Shown here in pieces: positions 22,263-51,151 of a stretch of DNA of 51,415 nt. A program made the position numbers and the translations under genes. The stretch spans positions 1-51,415 of the forward strand of contig VFZY01000010.1 in NCBI GenBank assembly GCA_016870915.1. Direction: 5' to 3'. Below the pieces are notes generated by a model. That model had not been told where the DNA came from. It made no database searches and saw only the letters and a program-made list of their open reading frames with translations. The stretch comes from Acidobacteriota bacterium. Its GTDB lineage: Bacteria > Acidobacteriota > Terriglobia > Bryobacterales > Bryobacteraceae. How positions within the stretch are numbered: the first letter of the stretch is position 1; each line of letters begins with the position of its first letter.

Positions 22263-25200
22263 ATGAAACTGTTCGGGCTTGCCCTGATGATGGGAACTCG
22301 CGCGCTTGCCCAGGTTGGGATTCCGTTGGAAGGACAGGAGACATCCACCACGTCCACCATCGCGAACCTCACCGTTGCCGGCGTCACCTCAACGCAGGCG
22401 ATTATCAACTACACCTCGCCAGTCACCTCGCCGTGTACGGTCGAAGTGTCTGAAAATACTTCGTTTAACCCGCTTGTGAACGACGTCAACCCAATGCTTT
22501 TCCCCGGCTCGAACCTCGACAATCGAGTGGGCGGGGTGTTCGAGACCGGATTTCGTAGTTTCGTGGCCGGCCGGCACACCATGCAGTATCGCCAGACCAG
22601 TGTCAACCCGTTCGCGGCCCCCGACAACCGGCGGTATAGCCGGGCCCTCCAAGCCAACACGCTCCACTACTACAGGATCACCTGCGGCATCATCACCGCC
22701 ACGGGGACCTTTCAGACCAGCAACATCCCCCTGGGGAAAAACTTCAATGAGCTGCCAGGAAGTGACCACCGGTTCGTCGGCACCTACAACTGGCCCACCA
22801 TCGACCCCTCCGATCGCTCCCAGACCATGACGGACCCCTCCACGGGCCTTCTCGTCAAACGCCTCACCACCTCCACCGACTCCGTCTCCACGCAGTTGAA
22901 CAAGCCCGTAGCCCGGTGCCGCGGCTGGCGTTGGGAAGGTATCGTCCCCGGTGTCAGTTGCAACCTGATCCAGGACAATAATCAGGCGACATCCTATTCC
23001 TTCGGCGCCCGTGACACGCTCCACATCGACCTTGGCGCCGAGGCCTACCTTCCGCCCGCCCACTTCGAGGTCAACGCGGTGCTGGTTCGGATGAAGGCTG
23101 CCATCGACGGCACGCCCACGGGGGAAGACCGGTTCGTCGACGTCTGCCTCACCATCAACGGAACCTTTTGCTCGTCGGACCGCAAGGCCGTCGACCTCAC
23201 CACCTGCTCTGCTACCGCGTACACCGGCGAGTGCGCCAACATCGGGTCCTTGAACCCCGGCGACTTGTGGCGTGCCTCCGGGTACAACAACTCAGCCGGA
23301 GCGCTGGGCAGCGCCGATTTCGGCGTCCTGATTCAACCCCGCACCACAACCCAGCCAAGGATCTCCATTTACCATGCCCGCTACGACATCCAGGGCGGGC
23401 TGCGGTACGGCTTCCCCTACTCCGGCGCCGACAACCTGTGCTCGAACAATTCAACCACCGTGGCCGGCGACCCCCACTACATCTGCTGGGTGCCGGCAGG
23501 CTACAGCGGCCAGCGGGCAAGTCTCTATTCCATCAACGCAAACACCGGCCAGAGCTACCATCTGGGCGGCGCCCTCACGGGCACCAGCGTGTCCACAAAC
23601 AGCATGCCTTGCAACACGCTGTCGTTCGACCAGAACATCTGGAACCGTTTTTACTGCCTGGGCTCCACGGGAGGCAACACGGTGGTCCTCGCAGGCGAAT
23701 GGATCGGCCCCATGAACGTCAACAGCGCGGGGATCGCGGTGGAGCAGTACAACCCGGCGTTGCTCCGCTGGACCCTGCTCACTCCGGGCTCCAACCACAT
23801 CAAGAACCTGATCGCCGCCTATGAACCACGGTTCAACGCCGGCTGGCAGGCCAACAGTTATTGCAACCTCCAAAGCACCCAGAAGAACAACCTGATCATC
23901 CTCTGCATCGCTTTCCAGGACAATCATGCCTGGGTGGTGGCTTTCAACCCGGGCAACAACCTGCCGCTCGGCAGCGGCGGCACAGGCAGCGTCGTCGCCG
24001 CCATTCCGAGCTGGGACACGCCCGCCACCCGCTGGTGCGCGCTCCACTCGGTGATTGACGGCCCGGCGGACTCGCCCACCGTCAACCTCACCATCGTCGC
24101 GCACGGCAATGGCAGCACCGCCGTCCCCACCATGTCCATGCCCACTTTCGGCGCCGGGCCTTACCGCGTGCGCGTGGCCGGCCCCACCGGCGGCGCCATC
24201 ACCGCCACCGACACCATCTTCACCATCCAGCCGATCAATGGTCTCTACGAACCCGTCGACCCCGACCCTCACACCTCGGAGGCTTCCAACGGCTATCTGA
24301 TGGATGCCAGGCCCGGCGATCTTTTCCGGATCCTTGACACCTCGACAGGCAACGAATGGGTGGAACTGGTCCAGAAGCTGCCCAATAACCAATGGGAGGT
24401 GCGGCGTGGCGCGGGGAACAACAACTCGCCGTACATGACCGGCACCGGGTTCACTGTTTTCTCCATCTACACACCCACCTACAGCCACGCGGCTGGCACC
24501 CAAATGTACGCCTACTGCCGCGGCAAGACGCTCGCCCGCGGAGACTCGGGCACAGTGTTCTGGAACTTCGAGACCGACCCGCGCGGCACAGGCATCAACT
24601 GCCCGGACTGCGTAGGCGCGGACTCAAGCCAGATCATCGAGCACATCAACACCGGCGGCCACGTCGTCAGCCGGAACAACAAAACGGTCATGATCGGCAA
24701 CCTGGATTCCGGGTGCCCCCGTGTCGACGGCAAGGCGCAATGCTGGGCCACACAGTTCGGCAATGAGGCAACCGCCTTCAACACCTATCCGGCGGTGCAT
24801 GCCAATGCCCAGCCATCGTTTGAAGGCGTCACTGGAGCGGGCATCACCAGCTTCACCTACCACCCCAGCTACAGCCAGACCCAATCCACGCCCTACGAAA
24901 AGGACCGCTCGTTCCTCGACATGGTTCCCATGACCTACGGTTTGGCCTACGGTACGTTCAATCTGGTGTCCGGCACCACCTCCGTCTACAAGGGGAGCGG
25001 CCTCACCCTCAACCCCACCAAGCAGTCGACCATTGCCACTTGCGGCGATCAGATTCTGCGCGATGAATCCGGCCCCACGCTCGGCAACAGCATCACTGAT
25101 GGGACCCAGTACCGCTACTGCATCGCCCGGAAACCTGGCGAGTGCCGGTCCGATTCCCTCGTGGGAGACACCTATGTGAGCTGCCCGGGCACCACCTATA

Positions 25201-25778
25201 AGTACTCAAGCGACCCGTCCACCGTCCGGCGCTGTTCCGTCACCGTCCTGCCGGGATACGCCCAAAGCACCGTTCGCGACATCTGCGTGGGCGATGCCTG
25301 GGCCTACTCGCAGTCCCTGGTGCAGGCCTCGGCGTGGCAGAGCAGCCCCAAGGGCGAGCTCAACCGCAACCTGGGTAACATCTTCGGCCGCTTCCATGCC
25401 CCGGAGACAGCCTACGCCAGCGCTCGTATGCTGCCAAGCGGCCCCTGGGCCCTGGTGCCCGCCTGGCCGCTGGGTGGCACCGAGGTGTTCCTGATGAAAG
25501 TCCCGCCCTATCCGGCCTCCGATGGCTTCGACCGCTCGAAGTTTGTTCCGGTGACTCTCAACTTCCTGCGGCCCAACGTGTTGGGAATCAACTCATTCAC
25601 GGTGGAGTTCGGCTATCTCGAAAACGCCCCCGAACCGTCCTTCCTCTGGTGCACCACACGCAAGGAGACCTGCGTCAAAGGCACGCTCAAAGGATTCTCT
25701 ACTACCAGATCCGGTTCCGGGACGCCACCGGCGCCCTCAAGACATCGTCGATGCGCACCGCCTACGCGGTTCCCTGAC
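22263..25778 (+). CDS. Giant secreted protein of unknown function, paralogue A (C-terminus disrupted)
   Basis: About 1,170 residues. A signal peptide (MKLFGLALMMGTRALAQ) precedes a fibronectin-III-like N-terminal domain (VAGVTSTQAIINYTSPVTSPCTVEVSE). Long beta-rich sequence with many cysteines follows (for example DVCLTINGTFCSSDRK, RWCALHSVIDG, NCPDCVGADSSQIIEHINTGGHVVSR). It is homologous end to end to the product of 26804-30730. At about 25690 the frame breaks: GTLK is followed one frame over by RILYYQIRFRDATGALKTSSMRTAYAVP and a TGA at 25776-25778. That tail matches HRIVYYRIRYRN of the paralogue, where about 27 more residues separate the parts. A deletion of roughly 80 bases that also shifted the frame explains this. 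Without correction the frame stays open to 26054, overlapping the opposite gene. No known family recognised. Confidence 0.65.
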
Positions 25779-25789
25779 GACTCTCGAAA

Positions 25790-25824
25790 AATCCGGGAGC
25801 CGGAACCATGGGCTCCCGGATTTC
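25790..25824. terminator. Convergent terminator, strongest for the minus strand
   Basis: A perfect 13-bp stem, AAATCCGGGAGCC (25790-25802) with GGCTCCCGGATTT (25812-25824), has a 9-base loop. On the minus strand it is followed by TTTTTCG, a proper T-tract, for the gene ending at 25848. On the plus strand only ATTTCGG follows, so it acts mainly leftward while also lying 12 bp after the natural stop of giant gene A. Confidence 0.8.
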
Positions 25825-25847
25825 GGACCCTCCCCTCTTGCCTTGGC

Positions 25848-26747
25848 TTAAGGCTCCAGGTAGATGGCCGGCGGCAGAGTGTTCGACGCCGTGATCGTCC
25901 CGCAACTGGCCGGGAACGTGACGTCGCCCGCAACCCACGTCAAGGCGGCCACGGTTCCAGCCCTCTTCACCGTGCCCGCGTTCAGAATGTCGAGACCCGA
26001 AGCATGAACCGCGCCCGCCCAGAGCTGTACGCCCGTGGCCGAACCCGTGAATGAGACATGATAGACGCCCGGGTTCAGCGTGAGCGCCGGCGACAGAGTT
26101 ACCGTCTTCGCGCCCGTGGTGGCGCTGCTCGCCACCGCCGACTGGGCCAGCATCGTCCCACAAGCCTGATCCCAGATCGCAAACTTCATCGTCGAGCCGG
26201 CCGAGGCGGCGAAGACGTTGACGCTCAACCGTCCCACGGTGATGGCTTCCGACACCACGATCTGGTACACCCGGTGGGTGCCGCTCACCGTAAATGGCGT
26301 CGTGGCCGAGCCGCTGCTGCCGAACGGCGACCAGAAGCCGAAGCCCACACTGGAGGTAAGCAGAGGGCTCCACCCGCTGGCCAGCCGGCCGGTACCATTG
26401 GCTTTCACGATGGCATTGGCGCCCGGCGTGGCCGTGGCCACTTCGTCAGCCCCGCCATGCTGGTGCGAATTGGCGTGCGGACCGCCCGCCCCGCCGCTCA
26501 CCTGCGCCCAGTTGTTGTCGGTTGAGCACAGGTGCAGGTTCTGGCCGGCCAGACTGGTGGTCCGGAAGAACATCTCCCCGGCCGAACAGGTGGCGGGCAG
26601 CGTGGCGCCGCTCTTGGCGGGCTTCGTAAGGGTGGCCGCGGAGGCATCCAGGCTGCCCTGAATCGTCCGTCCGCCATTGATTGTCGTTTGCCCCTGAAGA
26701 AGGGTTGCGGCCAGCGTCGCGCCGGCCAGCAGGATTCTGGTCTTCAT
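25848..26747 (-). CDS. Secreted tail-fibre-like protein, short paralogue
   Basis: A 299-residue exported protein. ATG 26747 is chosen because GAGGACACTT lies upstream and it opens a signal peptide (MKTRILLAGATLAATLLQGQ). It has LPATCSAGEMFFRTTSLAGQNLHLC, the same module as LPATCQTGETYW..AGRNLLGC in the 14517 protein, then a spacer with HANSHQHGGADEV typical of phage tail proteins. The C-terminal half (FTVSGTHRVYQIVVSEAITVGRLSVNVFAAS...NPGVYHVSFTG) looks like a jelly-roll carbohydrate-binding or tip domain. It sits 56 bp downstream of giant gene B and ends at the strong terminator, so the two are probably co-transcribed. Confidence 0.7.
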   Translation of the reverse strand: MKTRILLAGATLAATLLQGQTTINGGRTIQGSLDASAATLTKPAKSGATLPATCSAGEMFFRTTSLAGQNLHLCSTDNNWAQVSGGAGGPHANSHQHGGADEVATATPGANAIVKANGTGRLASGWSPLLTSSVGFGFWSPFGSSGSATTPFTVSGTHRVYQIVVSEAITVGRLSVNVFAASAGSTMKFAIWDQACGTMLAQSAVASSATTGAKTVTLSPALTLNPGVYHVSFTGSATGVQLWAGAVHASGLDILNAGTVKRAGTVAALTWVAGDVTFPASCGTITASNTLPPAIYLEP

Positions 26748-26803: not shown

Positions 26804-29800
26804 CTATGGCACCACCTCCGCCTGAATGGCGCTCGACGCAATGACCTGATTCAAGGCGTTGCGGTACCGGATGCGGTAATAAACAATCCGGTGCGATATC
26901 CCCGGCACGGTCACCGTGCACGAGCCGGTGCACGGCTGCCCGGTGTATGTCTCAGACGCGAACGCGTAATTGTTGCCCGTGTGATTGCCGCGAACGCACT
27001 CCTCCTGCCGGCTGGTGCAGAAGAACTGGTCCGCGGCGCCGTTCTCCTCATACCCGAAGGCCACCACCACGTTGTCCACGCCCAGACCGGGCGGCGGTTG
27101 CACCCGGACGTTGACGGGAACAAACGAGGAACGCGTGGCGCTGTCCCTCCCTGGATAGGGCGGTATCCTCGCCATGTAGATGTCGGCGCGCTCATGTCTC
27201 CAGGCCGGAAACAGAAGCCACTTGTTGTCCGGCGTCTGTTTGGCGTTGTGGAACAACGTCTGTGTCTTGTGGTGAATTCCAAACCCATAACTCAGCGTTC
27301 GATTGCCTTCGCCGAAACTTGAGCTGCGCTGGGCCCCGAACTGCACCACCGCCTGGCCGTAGGCCGTCGCATCCCCCACGCAAAGATCGATCAACGGATT
27401 GGGCGGCGCCACACTGTTCGCACCGTTGGCGCAGTTCGCCTTCGGGTTGAAAAGGGAGATGTTCGGACAGTGCGTGTACACATCGCCCGGCGCCGAGTCC
27501 GGCCGGCATTCGCCGGGCTTATTCGCCACGCAGTAGGTGTATGGCGTCGCATCTGAAATCAGACTGCCGGTCTGCGGACTCGAAATGTCGCGCAGAATCC
27601 GTTCGCCGCAGGTGGCAAGCGTCGGCAGGAACTTCCTGTCCAGCACATTCGCCGGCACCACCTTGTATGTTGCCGTGGTGCCCGGAACCAGGTTCGCGTC
27701 CGACAGGTTGTACGGGCCGGATCCGTTCATGAACGGCAGCACATCGACAAACGGCGACTGCAACTCATGAGACGACGCGTTCGACTGATGGTAGCTCGGG
27801 TGCTGCTGGTAGTCGTTCCCGGAGCCCGGGCTCTTGAAGCCCGAAAACGGCGGCACCGCGTTGTTGAACACCTGAGGCGGCTGATTGATACCGTTCGGCA
27901 CCCCGCCTACCTGATTGCTGTAGCAGACCGGGCCGCCCAGAACGTTCGGGCAGCCGCCGTCGGCGTTGGCCGAAGTCACCATGCCATGCACGCGAGCCAC
28001 CAGATGGCCGCCGATGCCGAAATGCTCGGTGACCTGCGAGGCCACCTTGGGATCGGTGCAGGGCGGGCAGCCGACGGTCGACGTCCCTGTCGGATCCGTG
28101 AACGGATTCCACCAGATGTGCGGGGCGTCGCCGCGGCGCATGGTCTTGGACCGGCACTCAACACCGATCGACGTGCCGGCCGGCCAGGACTTCGGCATCC
28201 CGGTGATGAAGCCCGGCGAGAACGTAAAGCCTAGGCTCGACGGGTAGAACGGCGAGTTGCCGTTCATCTGCGCGATGCGCCGGATGGTCCACGTGTTGCC
28301 GGTCTTGGCCACCAGTTCGAACATTTCATCCGTGGTTCCGGAGTACACGCCGTCGCCATTGGCGTCGAAGTAGAACATGTCGTTTGGCTGCGCATCCATC
28401 AGATACCCGTCGGCCGCGTCGCCAAACCGGCGCCCCGTGGCATCCACTGCATTCACTACGCACCGGCCGGTGCGCGCCGTCAGGAACGTGATGGTGATGT
28501 TGAAGCTGGCGTCGGTGGTGATGGCGGCGGGTGTCATCAACGCCGCCGGGGTCACCGTGGTGTCGTGGCAGGTGATGGTGCTGCTGTTGAAGATGGGCGC
28601 CGGTGTCACCGTGGTGTAGTTGTGCTGTGAGGCATTCACCGTCACCACGGTCTGCCCGGTGAACGTCACCGAGTAGCGTGGCAGGCGCTCGAACGGCTCA
28701 AACCGGCGCGGATCCGAACTGCTCATGTAGGGATTGGCCGGAACCGTGATCGTGGTGTCGGTAAGCGAAACGCTGTTCACACTGTTCTGCTGGTAGGGTC
28801 CGCTCATCACCAACTGCCCAAGACCGACCAACCGGTTCATCTGCACGGTGAACCACGATGCGTCCGGACCGGCGTTCAGTACCGAATGGCCGCCACACCA
28901 CCGGGAAAGCGGCATTTTGTGCAGCGTGGTGAAGGCTCGCACGCACGGACGCCCGCCGGTGCAGTTATTGGTCCAACTGCTCTGCGGCAGCGGCTGGCCG
29001 TCGCCCGGATCGAAGACCCCCCACCACGTCAGCCCGTCCTGGCGTACCCAGCACCGGATCGCGAGAAAGCCGCCTTGCTGATGCACGATCTGGCAACTGG
29101 AGTTGTCCTGCCAGTAGGTGTTGTAGCTCGGGTCGAAGTCCTGGATCAGCTTCACCAGATGCGATCCGCCAGGGGTCAGAACCGTGATGCGCATCTTGGA
29201 TGATGAGATATTCGGCAAACCACCTGGAGCCGGGCAATCACCCGCCCCCGAGCAGTCCACCTCTCCCGTGTACTCACCCATCACGACAACGGTCTTGCCC
29301 GTGGCGTCGTTGACCGAAAGATACCATCGCCGGGCGTTCAGGCCATCGAAGATCGGAATCGGCTGCGCGCGCCGGGCGCCGATGTTGTAACCGGCTGGGG
29401 CGTCCGCGATCGCGTTGGTCTGGATGGGGCCGATCCGGTAGACATCGCCGGTATCGGTGTTGATCGACACCATCGTTGCGGGCGAGCCTACGCCCATCAT
29501 GAAGCAGAAGTAGAAGGTCTGGCCGTTCTTCACCACCGGCACAAAGGAGCAAACTTCCTCCGACCCCGCCGACGTCCAGTTGTAGATCCAGCCTGCCTCC
29601 AGGTTGTACCGGACATGCTCCAGGGTAAGATCCGGCTGCGTGGCCGTCCGGGGGGTGATCAGGATGCCGAAGTTCGCCCGGTTCAGAATGCCATCAATGT
29701 AGTGGCGGTCGCCGCGCCAGGTCTCAAGAGACCATTCAAGGGAGCAGGAGTACGTCGTCAGGCTGCACGTGGTGACATCCAATTCCTTGACATCCGAATC

Positions 29801-30730
29801 GCAATTGGTGCCGTTGTTCGTCAGGCACACATCGACGAAACGGTCCACGCCGGTGGCCGCCGAGGCGAAGCCCGCCCGGAACTCGATGGTGATGCCGTTG
29901 GTCTCATAGGCGTTGAACGACACCGCCGACCGGGTGTTCAGGTTGACATAAAGCGAGCCGGTGTTGCCGGAGGCATGCGTGGTGGCCGGCGCTGCCGATG
30001 ATGTCGCGCCGCAGGCCGCGCCCGCGCCAGTCCCGGACCAACTGGGCCCGGAGCACGACGATGGATTCCGCGCCGTCACCTGGCTCTGAGCCCACTGGGG
30101 CGTGGTGATACGGCGAATCAGAGCCCCTGTCAAAGGGTCGATGATCCGTTCCGCCTGGCCGGCCGGGCTCCAGTCCGGGTCGGGCCAGTTATAGTGGCCT
30201 GGATCGCCGTGATCGGAGGGAAGCATCTCCGGGTAGGTCTTGCCCAGCGGGATGTTCGGCGTCCGGAACTCTCCCGTGGCTGTGTGCACGCCGCACGTGA
30301 TGCGGTAGTAGTGCGTCATGTCGGCCTGCAGGGCCCGGCTGTAGCGCCGTCCGTCGGTGGCCAAGAAAGGATTAGCCGACCCCTGAGAGTAGCTCATCCC
30401 ATGCCGGCCCACCACAAAAATGCGGTTGGTGCCATCCGGGGTCCAGGAAGCCCGGTTGTCGGTGTCAGCGCCGGGAAACAGGACCGGGTTTACGTCATGA
30501 ATCAGAGGTGTCAGGGCCGGCGATTCGCTCGCCTCCACCTGACAGGGGTTGCCGTCCGGGGCCGAGTAAGCAAGAATCGCCTGTGTGGGTGAGACACCCA
30601 GCACTCGGACGTTGGAGATTTGCGCCCGTGCCGCGCCCGGGTCAAAAAAGAGCAGCAGCAGGAAGGGGCTGAGCCCCCGCAGCAGCTTGCCGCCCGGAAA
30701 GGCGTGTGGTTGGTTCCGAAAAAGTGTCAT
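26804..30730 (-). CDS. Giant secreted protein of unknown function, paralogue B (intact)
   Basis: A 1,308-residue exported protein; the ATG at 30730 follows AGAGG and a basic, hydrophobic leader ends near ARAQ (residue 36). The N-terminus is FN3-like (VRVLGVSPTQAILAYSAPDGNPCQVEASE). The body repeats the landmarks of paralogue A: FVVGRHGMSYSQ, RRYSRALQADMTHYYRITCG, DVCLTNNGTNCDSD, SRWCGGHSVLNAG, SQVTEHFGIGGHLVARV, LATCGERILRD, VANKPGECRPDS, LLFPAWRHERADIYMARIPPYPG. Between about residues 680 and 770 it contains a segment absent from A that ends in FNITITFLTARTGRCVVN. This is the same module as FDVVITFTVAQTGRCVVNG in the tail-fibre-like protein at 14517. The many conserved cysteines suggest disulfide-bonded domains outside the cell. 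Family and function unknown. Confidence 0.7.
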   Translation of the reverse strand: MTLFRNQPHAFPGGKLLRGLSPFLLLLFFDPGAARAQISNVRVLGVSPTQAILAYSAPDGNPCQVEASESPALTPLIHDVNPVLFPGADTDNRASWTPDGTNRIFVVGRHGMSYSQGSANPFLATDGRRYSRALQADMTHYYRITCGVHTATGEFRTPNIPLGKTYPEMLPSDHGDPGHYNWPDPDWSPAGQAERIIDPLTGALIRRITTPQWAQSQVTARNPSSCSGPSWSGTGAGAACGATSSAAPATTHASGNTGSLYVNLNTRSAVSFNAYETNGITIEFRAGFASAATGVDRFVDVCLTNNGTNCDSDVKELDVTTCSLTTYSCSLEWSLETWRGDRHYIDGILNRANFGILITPRTATQPDLTLEHVRYNLEAGWIYNWTSAGSEEVCSFVPVVKNGQTFYFCFMMGVGSPATMVSINTDTGDVYRIGPIQTNAIADAPAGYNIGARRAQPIPIFDGLNARRWYLSVNDATGKTVVVMGEYTGEVDCSGAGDCPAPGGLPNISSSKMRITVLTPGGSHLVKLIQDFDPSYNTYWQDNSSCQIVHQQGGFLAIRCWVRQDGLTWWGVFDPGDGQPLPQSSWTNNCTGGRPCVRAFTTLHKMPLSRWCGGHSVLNAGPDASWFTVQMNRLVGLGQLVMSGPYQQNSVNSVSLTDTTITVPANPYMSSSDPRRFEPFERLPRYSVTFTGQTVVTVNASQHNYTTVTPAPIFNSSTITCHDTTVTPAALMTPAAITTDASFNITITFLTARTGRCVVNAVDATGRRFGDAADGYLMDAQPNDMFYFDANGDGVYSGTTDEMFELVAKTGNTWTIRRIAQMNGNSPFYPSSLGFTFSPGFITGMPKSWPAGTSIGVECRSKTMRRGDAPHIWWNPFTDPTGTSTVGCPPCTDPKVASQVTEHFGIGGHLVARVHGMVTSANADGGCPNVLGGPVCYSNQVGGVPNGINQPPQVFNNAVPPFSGFKSPGSGNDYQQHPSYHQSNASSHELQSPFVDVLPFMNGSGPYNLSDANLVPGTTATYKVVPANVLDRKFLPTLATCGERILRDISSPQTGSLISDATPYTYCVANKPGECRPDSAPGDVYTHCPNISLFNPKANCANGANSVAPPNPLIDLCVGDATAYGQAVVQFGAQRSSSFGEGNRTLSYGFGIHHKTQTLFHNAKQTPDNKWLLFPAWRHERADIYMARIPPYPGRDSATRSSFVPVNVRVQPPPGLGVDNVVVAFGYEENGAADQFFCTSRQEECVRGNHTGNNYAFASETYTGQPCTGSCTVTVPGISHRIVYYRIRYRNALNQVIASSAIQAEVVP

Positions 30731-38000: not shown

Positions 38001-38730
38001 ACTCACGCTCAGCGGCAGCCAGGTGGTGCTGACGGAACCGGCGCCGGCCGGCGGCTACGTAGTGGCTCTCGCCAGTTCGAACACGGCTGTGGCCACCGTA
38101 CCGGCCAATGTCACAGTGCCTGCCGGGGCCACAACGGCCACCTTCACCATCACCACCAACCCCACGGCCTCCAACGCCGCGGCTGTCATCACGGCAACGG
38201 CAGGCAGCGGCGTGCGATCACAGACTTTGACGGTCACGCCACCACAACTGGTGAGCGTGACGCTGGCTGAGCCTTTGGCCTCGGCGCAATCGAGTTTCGG
38301 CGGCAATGCAGTGACATTAAACGTACCGGCCCCGGCGAGTGGGACGACGGTTGCATTGAGCAGTTCGAACGCGGCCGTAACGGTTCCGGCGAGCGTGGTT
38401 GTTCCCGCCGGCGCAACAACCGCCACATTCAACATCAGTGTGGGTAGCCTTGCCGCCAACGGAACCGCCACGATCACGGCAACGCTGGCTGGCGGCAGCC
38501 AGACCGCTCTGCTGAACCTTCAGGTGGTTCGGCTCTCATTCATCAACCCGTTGTCGAACATATCAAGCGGGCGCACATCCACCATCAACGAAGTACACCT
38601 TACGGGCCCGGCGCCCGCGGGTGGAGCTCTCGTCCAATTGAGCGTCACGCGGCCTGAAGTCTTCAATTCTCCGCCAGTTTCAGTGTTGATTCCCGAGGGC
38701 CAGACCAAGGCGTCATTCACCCTAACATAA
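35008..38730 (+). CDS. Giant Ig-like repeat surface protein, segment 1 (signal peptide and 13 repeats)
   Basis: TTG 35008 with GAGGAG at 34995-35000 is preferred over the far-upstream GTG-type start at 34873, which would put 45 odd residues before the signal peptide (TGHQRVLWTALPVLLLGAAQADAQ). The mature part is 13 tandem units of about 93-96 residues, each with a GG..N..(V/L)xLNGPAPAGG opening, an LSSSNPAVASVPASVTVPAGATSATFTITT core and an ATxxGxxRTATLTV end. This is a bacterial Ig-like/Calx-beta-type fold, usual for long surface adhesins. Segment 1 stops at TAA 38728, but the same repeat continues one frame over from about 38721, so a base was lost near 38722-38724. Confidence 0.75.
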   Translation: MTGHQRVLWTALPVLLLGAAQADAQLLSYAGGPATVVSGQTVTTSLVQIYLTAPLGGAPISVSSSNPAVLSVPSVVTIPEGANRVFFPITASMVAAHTLVTVTASTPQNVKTFNVTVIPMAVASVVVPPTSLGGRVLTASNLVILNGKAPAAGFPVTLASSNTAVVTVAPATLTVPAGLDRTNFTITTAPVAVDASATITATGGGITRSASITVTAPAPSSLTLGQTGILGGLTVANNRVLLNAAAPAGGSAITLASSDPAAVPVPDVLVIPAGATQGTFNIVTSAVAAPVAAIISATGNGVTRTATLTVGPLTLNSVTVSNASPGGGITVNGNQVFLNGPAPAGGVTVALGSSNPALIVPPSVLVPAGASSASFSFTTGVVAAATPVVITASFMGIDRTANVTVTPAALTLVTIPSSIVGGNSTATPAVTLSGIAPATGAVVALSSSNPAVASVPASVTVLSGATTATFTITTTAVTAATPVTITANYLGVNRTATINVQPVLISQFTASANTVGGRVTQDGNPLYLNGPAPPGGVTVTVTSSNPAALVAENLTIPEGSTSGRVRLTAIAVPTDTVVTVTATLGSSTKTANVTVKASVPNALLLSRQSIVGGTNTGSNRIILSGTAIAGGQPMTVTSSNPAAATAPATVTVAAGASWVDFNITTFPVTETTPVTFTVTYGAVSVTATANITPVIGLTSVNLTQPQATGPGTLPGNQLVLNGPLAVAGTVTLSSSNPSVASVPASVSIPANATSGTFTVTLNTVAAPTNIVISATYGGVTRQANLTVNPVVDLTTLTLAQPQVLGGTTLNGNSLGLNVAAFGAGFAVSLSSSNPSVASVPASVTVPSGASSALFSITTSPVAAHTDVVITATAGTTVRTVTLTVTESVTLTALLLAQPGLVGGNSLPGNQVILSGPAPSSTAVQLASSNPAAQTPAEVIVPTGQSSAAFTITSSVVTAPMDLVITATLGATSRTANLSLATPTLLSSISLIQASITGGLTLSGSQVVLTEPAPAGGYVVALASSNTAVATVPANVTVPAGATTATFTITTNPTASNAAAVITATAGSGVRSQTLTVTPPQLVSVTLAEPLASAQSSFGGNAVTLNVPAPASGTTVALSSSNAAVTVPASVVVPAGATTATFNISVGSLAANGTATITATLAGGSQTALLNLQVVRLSFINPLSNISSGRTSTINEVHLTGPAPAGGALVQLSVTRPEVFNSPPVSVLIPEGQTKASFTLT

Positions 38731-42014: not shown

Positions 42015-43634
42015 GTGGCACGAGACATCGTCAAGCCGTCTCTCCTCAACCTGTCCGTTGAAGAAGAGAACCTGGCTGCCATTCCATTCGCTGTATTGGA
42101 ACGGCGTGTCGGCAAGAAGCTCGATAAGCTGGAAGTCCGGGGAACCAAAGTACTGCCGGACGGCACCGAGCTTGAGGTTCTGTGGCAGGTTCAGGGCGAT
42201 AACGACCTGGGACTGCCCACCGAGCAGGATCTCGATATTTTCGTTGCGCTGGGCGTGTTGACGTTCCGGGGCAACTTCGAAAAGACGATTGTCTTTACCG
42301 GGCGCGAGATCGCCAAGATTCTCAACACCAACGTTCACGGGAAGTTCTACCAGCGCCTGAAGCTGGCCATGGGGCGCCTGATCGCTCTACGCTTCCGTGC
42401 CGTGGCGTCGAATGAACGCCAGGAGCATGTGAAGTGGGTGAATGTCTTCCAGGAAACAAGCTTTGCACTCGACCGCGATTCCGGCCGCTGCACGGGCACC
42501 GTCACCTGGACCGACAAGATCATCAACTCGATGGGAAGCGGCTTTTTCCGCCTGCTGGATGCCAGCCGGTACATGGAGCTGGATGGCATTACGGCCAAGC
42601 ACCTGTACCGTTTTCTCACCGTTGCGTTTGAAAAGACCGACACGATTTTTATCGATGCGCGGAAGCTCGCGACGGAGCATCTGGGCATTCTGACGCCGCC
42701 GCAGTACCTCTCGCGTTTGATGCAGACGCTGGAGCCGGCCTTTGAGCAGTTGATCCGCGTGGAGGTTCTGGGCGGTTACCATGTCGCTTCGGCCGAGGAG
42801 TGGCGGATCGCGTTGAGACGCCATCCCGCGTATGTGCCTGAACGTAAGGCGCTGCTGCTGGAAGCTCCCGGCAAGGATCCGGAGACATTGCGTGCGCATT
42901 GCCAGCGCCAGTTGGAGCAGGGCGGCCTTGCGACACGCGTCGCCGCGGCGTACTGTTCTTCCGCTGAAACACACGCCGATTTCTATGGCTTTGACCGCGC
43001 CGGGCGTCTGCTGCGGGGCATGATCGACAATGGCGTCATCTCGCACGTGGCGGTGTCGGTTGTACGGCGCGCGCTGGACCTGCTTTCGATGAACGCCGAA
43101 GTGCCGAAGCTGGAAGCGCGCGAGACGCTCGATCTCATCGAGATCGCGCTCGATGTGTGTGAGCAGAAAAAGCGGTCGCGCGAGAATCTGAAGAACGCCG
43201 GGGGCCTGTTGATCAAGCTGATCAAGGACCCGGAAGCACGCAAGCGCATGGTGGGTGAAGGCACCGAGGAGTCTCTCAAGGAGAACTACCGGCGCCGGGA
43301 AGAAGCATCGCGGCGCCAGCGCCACGAAGAAGAAGAGCGGGAGTTGATTCTGGAATACGAACAGTTCCGCGAATCGATGGCCACGCACATCTTCGCCGAG
43401 CTCACCGATGCCCGCAAGGCCACACTACGCCAGGAGAAAGCGGCTTTGTTTTCACACCAGGAACGGTTCCTGCGGCTGGGTGAAGAAGCCCAGCAGCGCG
43501 AGATTGAGCAAGCGATTCTGCTCGATTTGGCGCGGCAGGAAGTGGCTCCGTTCGAGAAATGGCGGCTGCGCCGGCGGGCTCAGCAGGCGGTGCTGCCGTT
43601 TATCGAAGAAACGGCTCAGTGGGCCAAGGCTTGA
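42015..43634 (+). CDS. Plasmid-type replication initiator (RPA/RepA-like)
   Basis: A 539-residue protein with the winged-helix order of replication initiator protein A: LPTEQDLDIFVALGVLTF, REIAKILNTNVHGKFYQRLKLAMGRLIALRFRAV, VNVFQETSFALDRDSGRCTGTVTW, FFRLLDASRYMELDGITAKHLYRFLTVAFEKTDTIFIDARKLATEHLGI and QYLSRLMQTLEPAFEQL. The last 150 residues are a charged helical/coiled-coil region (SLKENYRRREEASRRQRHEEEERELI). The start is GTG 42015 without a close Shine-Dalgarno. The iteron-like array lies directly upstream, so autoregulation and origin binding are likely. The 3' end overlaps the opposing glycosyltransferase by 19 bp. It sits in chromosomal DNA 7 kb from recA, which is unusual for this family. 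Confidence 0.7.
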   Translation: MARDIVKPSLLNLSVEEENLAAIPFAVLERRVGKKLDKLEVRGTKVLPDGTELEVLWQVQGDNDLGLPTEQDLDIFVALGVLTFRGNFEKTIVFTGREIAKILNTNVHGKFYQRLKLAMGRLIALRFRAVASNERQEHVKWVNVFQETSFALDRDSGRCTGTVTWTDKIINSMGSGFFRLLDASRYMELDGITAKHLYRFLTVAFEKTDTIFIDARKLATEHLGILTPPQYLSRLMQTLEPAFEQLIRVEVLGGYHVASAEEWRIALRRHPAYVPERKALLLEAPGKDPETLRAHCQRQLEQGGLATRVAAAYCSSAETHADFYGFDRAGRLLRGMIDNGVISHVAVSVVRRALDLLSMNAEVPKLEARETLDLIEIALDVCEQKKRSRENLKNAGGLLIKLIKDPEARKRMVGEGTEESLKENYRRREEASRRQRHEEEERELILEYEQFRESMATHIFAELTDARKATLRQEKAALFSHQERFLRLGEEAQQREIEQAILLDLARQEVAPFEKWRLRRRAQQAVLPFIEETAQWAKA

Positions 43635-48121: not shown

Positions 48122-48334
48122 TTAGAGGTCCTCGGGACGAAGACCGGTTTCCTTGCCAATCTTGGCGAGGGCTGCAGGACCAACTTCCTCGCTATCGTGG
48201 AAACAGAACGTATAATTCGGCCAACCATGACGCTGGAGCTTCCGATGGGAGCCGACCTGCTTCTTGAGGCTCCATCCGATCCTATGCAAAGCCGCATAAA
48301 CTCGCTTTGCTTTCGTGGCGCGCCACGTGCTCAT
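48122..48334 (-). CDS. hicA: HicA-type toxin (mRNA interferase)
   Basis: A 70-residue dsRBD-fold toxin, normal length for HicA. The family core GSHRKLQRHGWPNYTFCFHDSEEVGPAALAKIGKETGL carries the catalytic histidine (SHRK) and the closing beta-strand/helix. Its ATG (48334) overlaps the TGA of the upstream antitoxin (ATGA), so translation is coupled, with the antitoxin made first. Inhibits growth by cleaving mRNA when unneutralised, as known for the family. Confidence 0.8.
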   Translation of the reverse strand: MSTWRATKAKRVYAALHRIGWSLKKQVGSHRKLQRHGWPNYTFCFHDSEEVGPAALAKIGKETGLRPEDL

Positions 48335-48546
48335 GCGGCGAATAGGAGGCGGAGGGGTTCGGGCACGGTTTCTCCACTTTCGATCATGTCAGCGAGTACC
48401 TGGAGAGCGATTGCCTTGACCTTGCGAACGGCTTCTGTTTCAGTGACACCATAGGCCATGACGCCCGGAAGATCCGGTACGGAGGCTAGAATCCGGCCAT
48501 CTTCCTCGCGCTCTACTTCAACGCGGATCGGCTCGATTGTGACCAT
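48331..48546 (-). CDS. hicB: HicB-type antitoxin
   Basis: A 71-residue HicB-like antitoxin with partial RNase H fold: EVEREEDGRILASVPDLPGVMAYGVTETEAVRKVKAIALQVLADMIESGE. It lacks the C-terminal ribbon-helix-helix or HTH domain of longer HicB proteins, as in many short HicB forms, so DNA binding may need the toxin complex. It is first gene of the pair, lying 57 bp downstream of the AAA/DUF4143 gene. Confidence 0.8.
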   Translation of the reverse strand: MVTIEPIRVEVEREEDGRILASVPDLPGVMAYGVTETEAVRKVKAIALQVLADMIESGETVPEPLRLLFAA

Positions 48547-48603: not shown

Positions 48604-49758
48604 CTAAAGCAAGGATTCGATGGCTGGACCCAGCGGCATGAACCACACCGTGAGATCGCCAAAGCGCCGCTCATAGGGTTGGTCAACGTCGCGGCAGACC
48701 ACCAGGTTAGGTCCGCCGGGGTACCGGCGGCGAAATGCCCGCAGGCCTTGGGGGTGGAACGCCGAGGCTCGCCACTTGCATTCGATGGCTGTGGGAGCGG
48801 CGGCGGGACGCGCCCGGACAACGAAATCGACTTCGTGCTTTTGTTTGTCGCGCCAGTACCGGATTTCAGCCCGTGGATAGCGGGCGCGCAACTCGTTCAG
48901 CACGTAGTGTTCCCACAACACACCATAGTCGGAAGGGCGGAGTTCACGCCAGTCGTTGAGGGCGCGGACGAAGCCGGTATCGAATCCGTACACCTTGGGA
49001 GCGGCCACGATCTCAGCCGCTTGATGGGTGTGGAATGGGCGCACGCGGTGCACCACCAGCGATGCCTCCAGCACCGCGAGGTAGTTTTGAACCGTGCCAC
49101 GGCTCACCTCACACGGCCCGGCCAGGTTCGATGCTTCAAAGATCGCGCCGCTTTGCGCGAACAATAGCTCGAACAGGCGCAGGAACGAGGCGCGCCGCTC
49201 GATTCGGAAAAGCTCCTGGATATCGCGGCTCCAGAACGAATCGATCCACTCCTGGACGGCATCCTCGGAAAGCCGGTTTGTCTGATAGAACCCCGGGAGC
49301 CCGCCCTGGGCCAGACGATGTTCCACCGGCAAGCCGCCGAACGCCATCCGGTCGTCTTCAATCATGGGCGTGAGCCAGACGTCAGCTTTCCGGCCGGTGA
49401 GGGTGTCGCCGAAGCGGGCCGAGGCTCCCAGGGTGCTGGAGCTGGTTGCCAGCACGCGCAAGTGCGAAAAATGGTCCGCTGCGATCTTGAGCACCTCCGA
49501 CGGCCGTTGCAGGCGGTGCACTTCGTCCAGTGCCACGAGGCCTCGGCGGCCCCGCCAAAAACTCTCCGGATCCTCAATCATGCGACGTACGGAGGGGAGT
49601 TCGCAGTCGAAGTACTCGACGCCCGGAAGGCTCTTGGCAAGCACGGTTTTGCCCGCGCGGCGGACGCCGGATAGCCAAACGACCGGGACACGCTCGAAGC
49701 GGGTCAGGATTTGAGAGATCCAGTATTGCCGCGTGACCAAACGACAGTAGTATTGCAA
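48604..49758 (-). CDS. AAA-family ATPase with C-terminal DUF4143
   Basis: A 384-residue soluble protein: P-loop ATPase with Walker A GVRRAGKT (31-38) and Walker B LVALDEVHR (about 74-82), sensor-like VLATSSSTLG, then a winged-helix segment. The C-terminal DUF4143 nuclease-like fold (YGVLWEHYVLNELRARYPRAEIRYWRDKQKHEVDFVV...TAIECKW) holds E..EVDF..ECK residues resembling a PD-(D/E)xK site. The start is uncertain: TTG 49758 overlaps a 25-bp palindrome; TTG 49740 (LVTRQYWISQI) fits the family N-terminus better. Proteins of this family are widespread, poorly characterised and common in accessory islands. It is co-directional with the TIR fusion and HicBA. Confidence 0.75.
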   Translation of the reverse strand: MQYYCRLVTRQYWISQILTRFERVPVVWLSGVRRAGKTVLAKSLPGVEYFDCELPSVRRMIEDPESFWRGRRGLVALDEVHRLQRPSEVLKIAADHFSHLRVLATSSSTLGASARFGDTLTGRKADVWLTPMIEDDRMAFGGLPVEHRLAQGGLPGFYQTNRLSEDAVQEWIDSFWSRDIQELFRIERRASFLRLFELLFAQSGAIFEASNLAGPCEVSRGTVQNYLAVLEASLVVHRVRPFHTHQAAEIVAAPKVYGFDTGFVRALNDWRELRPSDYGVLWEHYVLNELRARYPRAEIRYWRDKQKHEVDFVVRARPAAAPTAIECKWRASAFHPQGLRAFRRRYPGGPNLVVCRDVDQPYERRFGDLTVWFMPLGPAIESLL

Positions 49759-49889: not shown

Positions 49890-51151
49890 TCACACGCCTG
49901 CTGCCCGGGTTCTGGACCGTGGTTGTTGGCCGAACTTCCGGACGAACTGTTCAAGGATGTGCTTGTTGCTGGCAGCGATCAATCCAGTACGTTGAGTTGC
50001 CGAGCCAAGTTCCCATGAACCTTTGCTCGGAGGCCACGTGGTATCGCAGCCTTCCGCTGCTCGAAGGATTGCCAGGCCCGGAACGACATCCCAGGGGTAT
50101 GTGAACATCTGAAAGAAGAGGTGATGTGACCCCCGGCTGATTGCAGTCAAAGCCAAGAGTCCGCAGCCCCACATCCAGACCCGGCGCACAGAATTGTGGA
50201 ACCGCTTCGGAAGATCGTCCGCGAAGCAACGGTTGATCCTGTCCTGCTCGGAATTGACATGCGTGAGAGCATGACAGCTACTCATGTCGAGGGTTTCCCT
50301 GGCAGTTGTGAGCCTTTCGGTGCTGCCGTCGAGAATCAATCGGCGTTCCGCCGGAAACCCGCCTCCACCTGAGTACATTTCCATCCTGGCCGGCGCTACG
50401 ACCACTCCTAGAAGCGGCTTGCCGTTAAGCATGAGTCCTATGCCAATGCAAAAGCGGTCATCGCCCGAAACAAAATTCAGGGTGCCATCGAGCGGATCAA
50501 TTGTCCACGCATAACCAACCGATGGATCCGTTCCTGACTGGTGAACGGCTCTTCGGCCAAAATATACTCGCCAGGGTATCGTTCACTGATTCGATCCGAG
50601 ATCACTCGTTGAAGGTCTTGATCAATCTTAGTGGCATAATTCTTCCGGTTGTCACCGTCAACGGCAAGAGGGCGGCCAACCTGAAACCGAATACCATATC
50701 GATGCATCAGTTGTGCCGCAACCTCAATCCCAAGGTTTTGCATAAATCGAAGCCGTTGACTCTCAGGTAGCTCAAGAGACTTCAAGAGGCGCTGAAGGTC
50801 ATGCTTGCCAAACTGAAAGCGGTCAGGGAATGTGCCGCACATTGGGAAGTGATCGGGATGAGCCCAACGGGGGTCCCAAGGGCCATCATGGACGATCACA
50901 ATCCTCTTCTTGCAGTCATGAGCATAGGTGTATTCGTCTTTTTGATACTTAGCAGACAGAGAGTCATGAGTGAGGCACAGTACAAACACGTCCGAGTCCA
51001 ATATTTGCCTCGACGTATAATCTAACCAATTGGTGAGATGTTGCTTCAGCGCGATAAACGTGTAAAAACCGTGATTCTCCAATTGCTTGTTCAATTGAAT
51101 GGCTATGCTTGGAGAACTCCCGCAGTACGATAGGAAGACTTTTTGCGGCAT
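49890..51151 (-). CDS. TIR domain fused to an inositol-monophosphatase-like domain (one-base frameshift)
   Basis: ATG 51151 with an AGGTGG-type site upstream opens MPQKVFLSYCGSSPSIAIQL, a TIR domain (about 1-90) with NWLDYTSRQILDSDVFVLCLTHDSL and KDEYTYA; E73 is the candidate catalytic residue. From about 135 an IMPase-family phosphatase follows: metal-site YILAEE (196-201), WTIDPLDGTLNF (216-227) and WDVVPGLAILRAAEG (354-368), so both IMPase signatures are present. The first part reads to 50477 and the second from frame 49890-50531; they join if one A is restored at about 50531 (SQE then TDPSVGYAW), giving about 420 residues. A base lost from an A-run is the simplest cause, by error or mutation. 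TIR domains of this type cleave NAD; IMPases remove phosphate from inositol phosphates, PAP or NADP. I know no characterised protein with this fusion. Lower GC than neighbours suggests acquisition. Confidence 0.75.

What the first reader, a model, noticed from the sequence alone, without database searches (positions are those of the whole stretch)
49890..51151. TIR domain fused to an inositol-monophosphatase-like phosphatase
Seen: an N-terminal TIR fold (FLSYCG, SDVFVLCLTHDSL, KDEYTYA) and a complete IMPase set (AEE, WTIDPLDGTLNF, WDVVPG), readable as one about 420-residue chain once one A is restored near 50531. Known: bacterial TIR domains consume NAD or make cyclic ADP-ribose-type signals in anti-phage defence; IMPase-family enzymes dephosphorylate inositol phosphates, PAP or NADP, and in some archaea are fused to NAD kinase. 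Inference: the phosphatase may act on NADP (feeding the TIR with NAD) or on a TIR product, acting as sensor, supplier or off-switch. I do not recall a described system with this architecture.
Basis: partly seen in the sequence, partly recalled or inferred. Interest (0 to 1): 0.85.

Follow-up and report, generated by a model that had tools for sequence, protein, structure and literature searches.

The report
TIR domain fused to phosphatase enzyme
A bacterial gene joins a TIR domain, the NAD-destroying part of many immune proteins, to an inositol-phosphatase-type enzyme in one protein; it is broken by a reading-frame slip in this assembly, but an unbroken copy exists in a distant bacterium, so the combination is real, and it appears to be rare.

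Summary
The minus strand at 51151-49890 encodes a TIR domain followed directly by an inositol-monophosphatase (IMPase) domain, split by one net frame change between 50549 and about 50516. Pfam scores TIR_2 and Inositol_P above cut-off. A motif scan of about 85,000 species genomes found one intact homologue, in a Phycisphaeraceae MAG: one open frame, 43% identical over 414 columns. The fusion is therefore real and conserved; the break is local, probably an assembly error or recent mutation. The window TIR models as a TIR fold, with Glu73 in the place of SARM1's catalytic Glu. The IMPase keeps its EE, DPLDGT and WD motifs, but both fusions have Gln where 30 of 31 non-GDD relatives have Glu. Both genes look horizontally acquired. 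No third member appeared in 1,924 genome searches (repeats included), and no paper describing it in six literature searches. Best guess, untested: a stand-alone NAD(P)-consuming effector whose phosphatase removes a phosphate from NADP or a related nucleotide beside the TIR. A phosphate-sensing or dimerising role for the IMPase is almost as likely.

The parts
50768..51151 (-). TIR domain, residues 1-128, ATG start at 51151
   Evidence: Pfam TIR_2 E 2.9e-11 on residues 5-87; AlphaFold model pLDDT 85.5 with TIR-type alternating strands and helices; best Foldseek match SARM1 E 3.9e-6; VIA Z 15.7, rmsd 2.7, 126 aligned to a SARM1/TIR-1 chimera
50933..50935 (-). Glu73, candidate catalytic glutamate of the TIR
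   Evidence: invariant with L069; the A4 profile aligns it with a Glu of the SARM1 and of the TIR-STING segment; coordinates
50540..50761 (-). IMPase domain, N-terminal part (residues 131-204, with the metal-ligand motif AEE at 50549-50557)
   Evidence: weak Inositol_P match to profile 26-75 in this frame; 29 of 70 aligned residues identical to L069
50480..50582 (-). overlap of the two reading frames in which the frame change must lie; homology narrows it to about 50516-50549
   Evidence: stops at 50585 (IMPase frame) and 50479 (TIR frame); no in-phase X XXY YYZ heptamer in the overlap
49890..50534 (-). IMPase domain, C-terminal part, with DPLDGT (50481-50498), GDDRF (50451-50465), WMWGCG (50160-50177), PWD (50088-50096) and stop
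   Evidence: Pfam Inositol_P E 5.2e-31, profile 84-268; 113 of 202 aligned residues identical to L069

Best explanation
A horizontally acquired, stand-alone, two-domain enzyme of about 420 residues: an N-terminal TIR NAD(P) glycohydrolase joined directly to a catalytically equipped IMPase-superfamily phosphatase. Shown by sequence and models (confidence in this architecture about 0.97): both domains, their order, one-chain conservation in a second genome, the catalytic residues, foreign base composition, and a local frame break here. Inferred: on a trigger (phage infection or other stress) the TIR assembles and cleaves NAD, while the IMPase domain strips a phosphate from a nucleotide beside it, most likely the 2'-phosphate of NADP(H) or a related adenosine phosphate. 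That would turn NADP, a potent inhibitor of TIR catalysis in the case of SARM1, into NAD, a TIR substrate, and so collapse both coenzyme pools. The frame break is most likely an assembly error or a recent mutation, not programmed. The confidence below is for the mechanism.
For: Architecture. TIR fold and Glu73. IMPase: EE, DP and DGT in 48 of 48 aligned rows; both fusions carry Gln where 30 of 31 non-GDD relatives have Glu, the place that I recall as IMPA1 Glu213, an inositol contact, so the substrate is probably not inositol-1-phosphate. The best sequence match and best Foldseek match of the intact fusion in the PDB is S. aureus IMPase-II (phmmer E 4.3e-20; Foldseek E 8.1e-17), which has a 2'-AMP-bound entry (5dw8). 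The family includes NADP phosphatases: PDB titles of 5eyg, 5eyh and 5f24, and the archaeal NAD kinase/IMPase fusion MJ0917 with NADPase activity (PMC8553519, passages). SARM1 hydrolyses NADP as well as NAD, and NADP inhibits SARM1 TIR catalysis with a Kis of about 50 uM (PMC8844822, passages). Foreign origin: GC3 0.53 and 0.61 for the two parts against 0.74-0.84 in eight window genes, and 0.53 against 0.68-0.76 in three neighbours of L069. The break is local: no other stop in the two frames, L069 is intact, and two further apparent frame changes on this contig suggest base-level errors. Weak support for a defence setting: a PADLOC candidate (PDC-S01) ATPase and a HicAB pair lie downstream in the window.
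Against: No activity is known for either domain. Identity to S. aureus IMPase-II is only 24-28%, and VIA-align ranks histidinol-phosphatase (Z 30.4) and human IMPA1 (30.3) slightly above it (29.6), with SuhB at 29.4; entries titled NADP phosphatase come lower (Z 25-26). NCBIfam scores HisN above CysQ above SuhB for the intact fusion, all far below cut-off, and HisN above CysQ is also seen in the four GDD IMPases scanned. Loss of the Glu does not point to NADP in particular. SARM1 cleaves NADP directly, so a separate NADP phosphatase is not required. The homologue's contig shows no clear defence genes, so the defence role rests mainly on the TIR family.
Confidence: 0.36

Rival explanations
1. 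The IMPase fold is mainly a sensor and dimerisation module: it binds a phosphorylated small molecule (a nucleotide or sugar phosphate changed by phage or stress) and gates assembly of the TIR, as ARM-SAM, STING or APAZ do for other TIRs. Its phosphatase activity is slow or only resets the switch.
For: Matched TIRs sit on regulatory partners that drive assembly (SARM1, SPARTA, TIR-STING among the PDB matches). The model leaves only about five residues between the last TIR helix and the first IMPase helix, although that stretch is of low confidence. IMPases are usually dimers (recalled).
Against: EE, DP and DGT are kept in both fusions and WD is present in both, as expected if catalysis is selected. 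No ligand has been identified.
Confidence: 0.3
2. The phosphatase acts on the TIR product: it matures or destroys a phosphorylated ADP-ribose-type signal, so that the protein is a signal generator with a built-in second step or off-switch.
For: TIRs make ADPR and cyclic ADPR-type signals (PMC9503650, passages, which also describes phosphatase domains coupled to ADP-ribosylglycohydrolases). Tethering of consecutive enzymes is common (general knowledge).
Against: No receptor or effector gene of the Thoeris type was seen among the neighbours scanned; in the window the upstream side is cut off by the contig end.
Confidence: 0.17
3. The window copy is a decaying pseudogene of no present function, and the fusion functions only elsewhere. 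(This concerns the window copy alone and does not exclude the mechanisms above.)
For: As read, the gene would give a 224-residue TIR protein with a truncated IMPase.
Against: Only one lesion in about 420 codons; the part after the break keeps 113 of 202 residues identical to L069 and the checked motifs; two other apparent frame changes on the same contig point to sequence errors.
Confidence: 0.25
4. Programmed ribosomal frameshifting joins the two halves.
For: The frames overlap by about 100 bases and a -1 shift would produce the fusion.
Against: No in-phase X XXY YYZ heptamer in the overlap, and the homologue is a single open frame.
Confidence: 0.02

Closest known systems
SARM1 / TIR-1 (TIR NAD(P) hydrolases) and SPARTA TIR-APAZ
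   Same: TIR fold; candidate catalytic Glu in the same place; among the top PDB matches
   Different: their partners are regulatory (ARM-SAM, APAZ/Ago), not a phosphatase
Archaeal NAD kinase/NADP phosphatase fusion (MJ0917)
   Same: an IMPase-family domain with NADPase activity fused to an NAD(P)-acting enzyme (PMC8553519, passages)
   Different: the partner is NAD kinase, not a TIR; a metabolic enzyme with no immune role that I know of
S. aureus IMPase-II (PDB 5i3s, 5dw8, 3t0j)
   Same: first match of the intact fusion by sequence and by Foldseek
   Different: stand-alone enzyme, 24-28% identity, no TIR; VIA-align ranks other IMPase-family enzymes as high
Thoeris TIR proteins (ThsB; type III ThcB4)
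   Same: NCBIfam and PADLOC hits of the TIR part
   Different: 25.6 bits against a cut-off of 220; no Thoeris partner seen; no phosphatase domain in those proteins as I recall them; the intact homologue has no PADLOC hit at E 0.01

Membership tests
TIR domain NAD hydrolases | TIR sequence family | tested here: met
   Pfam TIR_2 44.3 bits, cut-off 28; homologue 65.7 bits
TIR domain NAD hydrolases | TIR fold | tested here: met
   window TIR model pLDDT 85.5, pTM 0.83; SARM1 first in Foldseek. Fold alone is not exclusive: nucleoside deoxyribosyltransferases reach Z 14.1 and 13.9, and type II dehydroquinases appear in Foldseek
TIR domain NAD hydrolases | catalytic glutamate | tested here: met
   Glu73 aligned with a Glu of the SARM1 segment and invariant with L069; E642 is the essential SARM1 residue (PMC8844822, passages); that the aligned Glu is E642 rests on recall
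TIR domain NAD hydrolases | NAD(P) cleavage | not testable with these tools
   needs an assay
IMPase superfamily (PF00459) | family profile and fold | tested here: met
   Inositol_P E 5.2e-31 and 1.3e-38 for the homologue; VIA Z up to 30.4 over residues 129-413
IMPase superfamily (PF00459) | metal-ligand residues (EE, DP-DGT, WD) | tested here: met
   EE, DP and DGT in 48 of 48 rows; WD present in both fusions
inositol-1-phosphate-type IMPase/SuhB | Glu at the inositol-contact place (IMPA1 Glu213, recalled) | tested here: not met
   Gln in both fusions against Glu in 30 of 31 non-GDD relatives
NADP phosphatase | hydrolysis of the 2'-phosphate of NADP | not testable with these tools
   only distant similarity to enzymes with that activity
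Thoeris | scores as a Thoeris TIR protein | tested here: not met
   25.6 bits against cut-off 220; PADLOC ThsB E 4.2e-5 on the TIR part only
Thoeris | adjacent effector gene (SIR2-SLOG or other) | tested here: inconclusive
   none among the L069/L087 frames scanned or the downstream window genes scanned; upstream side lost at the contig end
anti-phage defence system | protection from phage | not testable with these tools
   needs an experiment

The most novel reading that the evidence does not exclude
A new class of TIR immune effector in which the TIR is paired in one chain with a working phosphatase that feeds, de-inhibits or processes its nucleotide chemistry (NADP to NAD to ADP-ribose products, or a dephosphorylated ADP-ribose signal), linking NADP metabolism to TIR killing or signalling.
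Probability: 0.45. Interest if true: 0.85.

Novelty: new variant of a known kind. Interest (0 to 1): 0.62.

Why it matters
TIR domains are chemistry shared by bacterial, plant and animal immunity, and their partner domains usually tell how they are switched. A catalytic phosphatase as the partner is unexpected and makes a testable prediction: that TIR action is coupled to dephosphorylation of NADP or of a TIR product. An intact homologue that could be expressed is now in hand.

Tried and rejected
Exact-peptide scans with the TIR half found no relative in genome contigs or viral contigs; P0003 found none in viral contigs; a WMWGCGLL-type pattern matched nothing there, and the GDD pattern matched one viral contig that encodes an unrelated protein. 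tblastn with the TIR half found nothing in plasmids or phages. With a whole-length query no record covered 80% of it; the rows shown were IMPase-type. One search used the IMPase half only.

Whole-genome searches for the fusion: 297 and 396 genomes of the window's phylum, 392 of the homologue's phylum, 251 of its order, 250 of the window's class, 170 and 168 of two further phyla (no positive control in those sets). That is 1,924 searches with overlapping genomes. None showed a third fusion. The match lists are cut but sorted by E-value. Of the loci fetched, frames were checked for a TIR part and none was found outside the window's own. Searches used a threshold of E 1e-25; the window's own split halves scored 4.3e-76 and 4.4e-27. 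The motif scan needs an exact motif, so members without it are missed. Its 18 loci were 1 fusion, 15 stand-alone IMPases or fragments, and 2 unrelated proteins.

The contig (12.9 kb) also carries a HEAT-repeat protein, an aspartyl protease, a nickel superoxide dismutase, an alpha-2-macroglobulin fragment and a GAF/PAS/cNMP-binding class III cyclase, 7.3 kb from the fusion. The cyclase has PADLOC PycC hits (E 2.7e-26) on its cyclase domain; I read it as an ordinary sensor cyclase, but it is a result against 'no defence-like gene nearby'. Two other neighbours have weak PADLOC hits.

Rejected: programmed frameshift; misassembly chimera of two genes (intact homologue); Thoeris membership. The TIR alignment used a regular expression that recovered 11 of 30 fetched loci plus the two fusions; it was only a look, at least one row is doubtful, and it is not used as evidence. 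In the IMPase tree three fragments (L059, L060, L065) were left out of 48 rows, and treekit warns that long branches meet near the fusion clade, so only the grouping of the two fusions (100/100) is used.

Not available: no text on S. aureus IMPase with NADP was found in the library. Papers PMC2042097 and doi 10.1093/nar/gkv1267 are not held.

Full report
What is there. The minus strand from 51151 to 49890 carries two overlapping open frames. The first (51151-50477) encodes a TIR domain and the start of an IMPase domain; the second (to 49890) encodes the rest of the IMPase. Pfam scores TIR_2 at E 2.9e-11 and splits one Inositol_P profile between the frames: positions 26-75 weakly in the first (below cut-off) and 84-268 at E 5.2e-31 in the second. 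A ribosome-binding-like GAGG lies five bases before the ATG. The gene starts 264 bases from the end of its 51,415-base contig, so nothing is known of its upstream side.

The fusion is real. The IMPase part has an unusual GDDRF motif. A degenerate DNA pattern for it matched 18 stretches in a collection of about 85,000 species genomes. One of them, L069, from a Phycisphaeraceae MAG (Planctomycetota), encodes an unbroken chain with both domains: TIR_2 E 7e-18, Inositol_P E 1.3e-38, and 43% identity to the window reading over 414 alignment columns, E 7e-118. By part, identity is 35 of 127 (TIR), 29 of 70 (IMPase start) and 113 of 202 (IMPase rest). The listed genomes of the two phylum samples share no handle, which suggests two phyla.

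The break. The frame change lies between 50549 and about 50516. No in-phase slippery heptamer occurs in the overlap, and the homologue needs no shift. The window shows two other apparent frame changes: the paralogue of the 22263-26054 frame continues in another frame at about 25690 (30 residues, 43%, E 0.006), and the repeat protein changes frame near 38730 (read by eye). A local sequence error is therefore likely, though a mutation cannot be excluded without reads.

TIR. A model of the window TIR (pLDDT 85.5, pTM 0.83) matches SARM1 best in Foldseek (E 3.9e-6) and scores VIA Z 15.7, rmsd 2.7, 126 aligned against a SARM1/TIR-1 chimera, with SPARTA and plant TIRs close behind. Nucleoside deoxyribosyltransferases also reach Z 14.1 and 13.9 and dehydroquinases appear in Foldseek, so the sequence evidence matters: a profile of the two fusion TIRs finds SARM1 first among PDB sequences (E 1.3e-4), level with a TIR-STING fusion, and puts Glu73 on a Glu of both.

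IMPase. The model of the intact fusion (pLDDT 78.0, pTM 0.69) matches IMPase-family enzymes across residues 129-413. Foldseek puts S. aureus IMPase-II first, but VIA places histidinol-phosphatase, IMPA1, IMPase-II and SuhB within about 2 Z units (28-30.4) and entries titled NADP phosphatase at 25-26, so the fold does not tell the substrate. EE, DP and DGT are present in 48 of 48 rows. At the place that I recall as IMPA1 Glu213, both fusions have Gln; of 31 non-GDD relatives 30 have Glu and one Ser; the 15 GDD relatives have His, Phe, Tyr or a gap. The two fusion IMPases group with 100/100 support on a long stem (long-branch warning).

Context. Base composition marks both genes as foreign: GC3 0.53 (TIR part) and 0.61 (IMPase part) against 0.74-0.84 for eight window genes; 0.53 against 0.68-0.76 for three L069 neighbours. 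Downstream in the window are an AAA_14/DUF4143 gene, a PADLOC candidate family, and a HicAB pair. The L069 gene stands beside a DUF1501 gene, with a protease, a HEAT protein, a superoxide dismutase and, 7.3 kb away, a GAF/PAS cyclase with PADLOC PycC hits. No neighbour is shared among those scanned, which suggests a single-gene unit.

How it may work. TIRs cleave NAD, and SARM1 also NADP, with NADP inhibiting TIR catalysis at about 50 uM (PMC8844822, passages). IMPase-family enzymes include NADP phosphatases, and in archaea one is fused to NAD kinase (PMC8553519, passages). I therefore favour a self-contained effector in which the phosphatase acts on NADP or a related nucleotide beside the TIR (0.36), with a phosphate-sensing or dimerising module close behind (0.30) and product processing third (0.17). 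Nothing here shows activity or phage protection.

What is known. Searches of the open-access library gave no paper whose listing describes a TIR-IMPase protein; two searches listed only 20 of 1,137 and 12 of 28 papers. In two surveys of conflict systems that I searched for terms, 'inositol' and 'IMPase' do not occur (PMC9503650; PMC7159879). Most subscription papers and bioRxiv preprints are not held, so this is not proof of novelty. No third fusion was seen in 1,924 genome searches, repeats included. I rate it a new variant of a known kind: a TIR effector with a new, catalytic partner.

Noticed in passing
48122-48546 (-): HicA toxin and HicB-like antitoxin pair, both over Pfam cut-off.
   Followed up: partly
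48604-49758 (-): AAA_14/DUF4143 ATPase next downstream of the fusion; PADLOC candidate family PDC-S01. Not seen beside the homologue.
   Followed up: partly
about 25690 and about 38730: Two further apparent frame changes in coding-looking sequence: the C-terminal part of the 22263-26054 protein and a long Ig-like repeat protein. Suggests indel errors in this contig.
   Followed up: partly
22263-26054 (+) and 26804-30730 (-): Two large paralogous proteins of about 1,300 residues, 35-39% identical in the main matches, on opposite strands.
   Followed up: no
42015-43634 (+): Possible plasmid-type replication initiator (RPA, 24.3 bits, just under the cut-off of 27).
   Followed up: no
G000 (whole genome): Ten TIR_2 matches at E up to 0.001 in this one genome: rich in TIR proteins.
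   Followed up: no
L055-L063, L065-L067, L070-L072: Stand-alone IMPases or fragments with the GDD motif in several phyla (Alphaproteobacteria, Nocardiopsis, Acidobacteria, Gottesmanbacteria and others), none with Glu at the recalled inositol-contact place; function unknown here.
   Followed up: partly
L087:9049-11940 (-): GAF/PAS/cNMP-binding class III cyclase on the homologue's contig, with PADLOC PycC hits on the cyclase domain.
   Followed up: no
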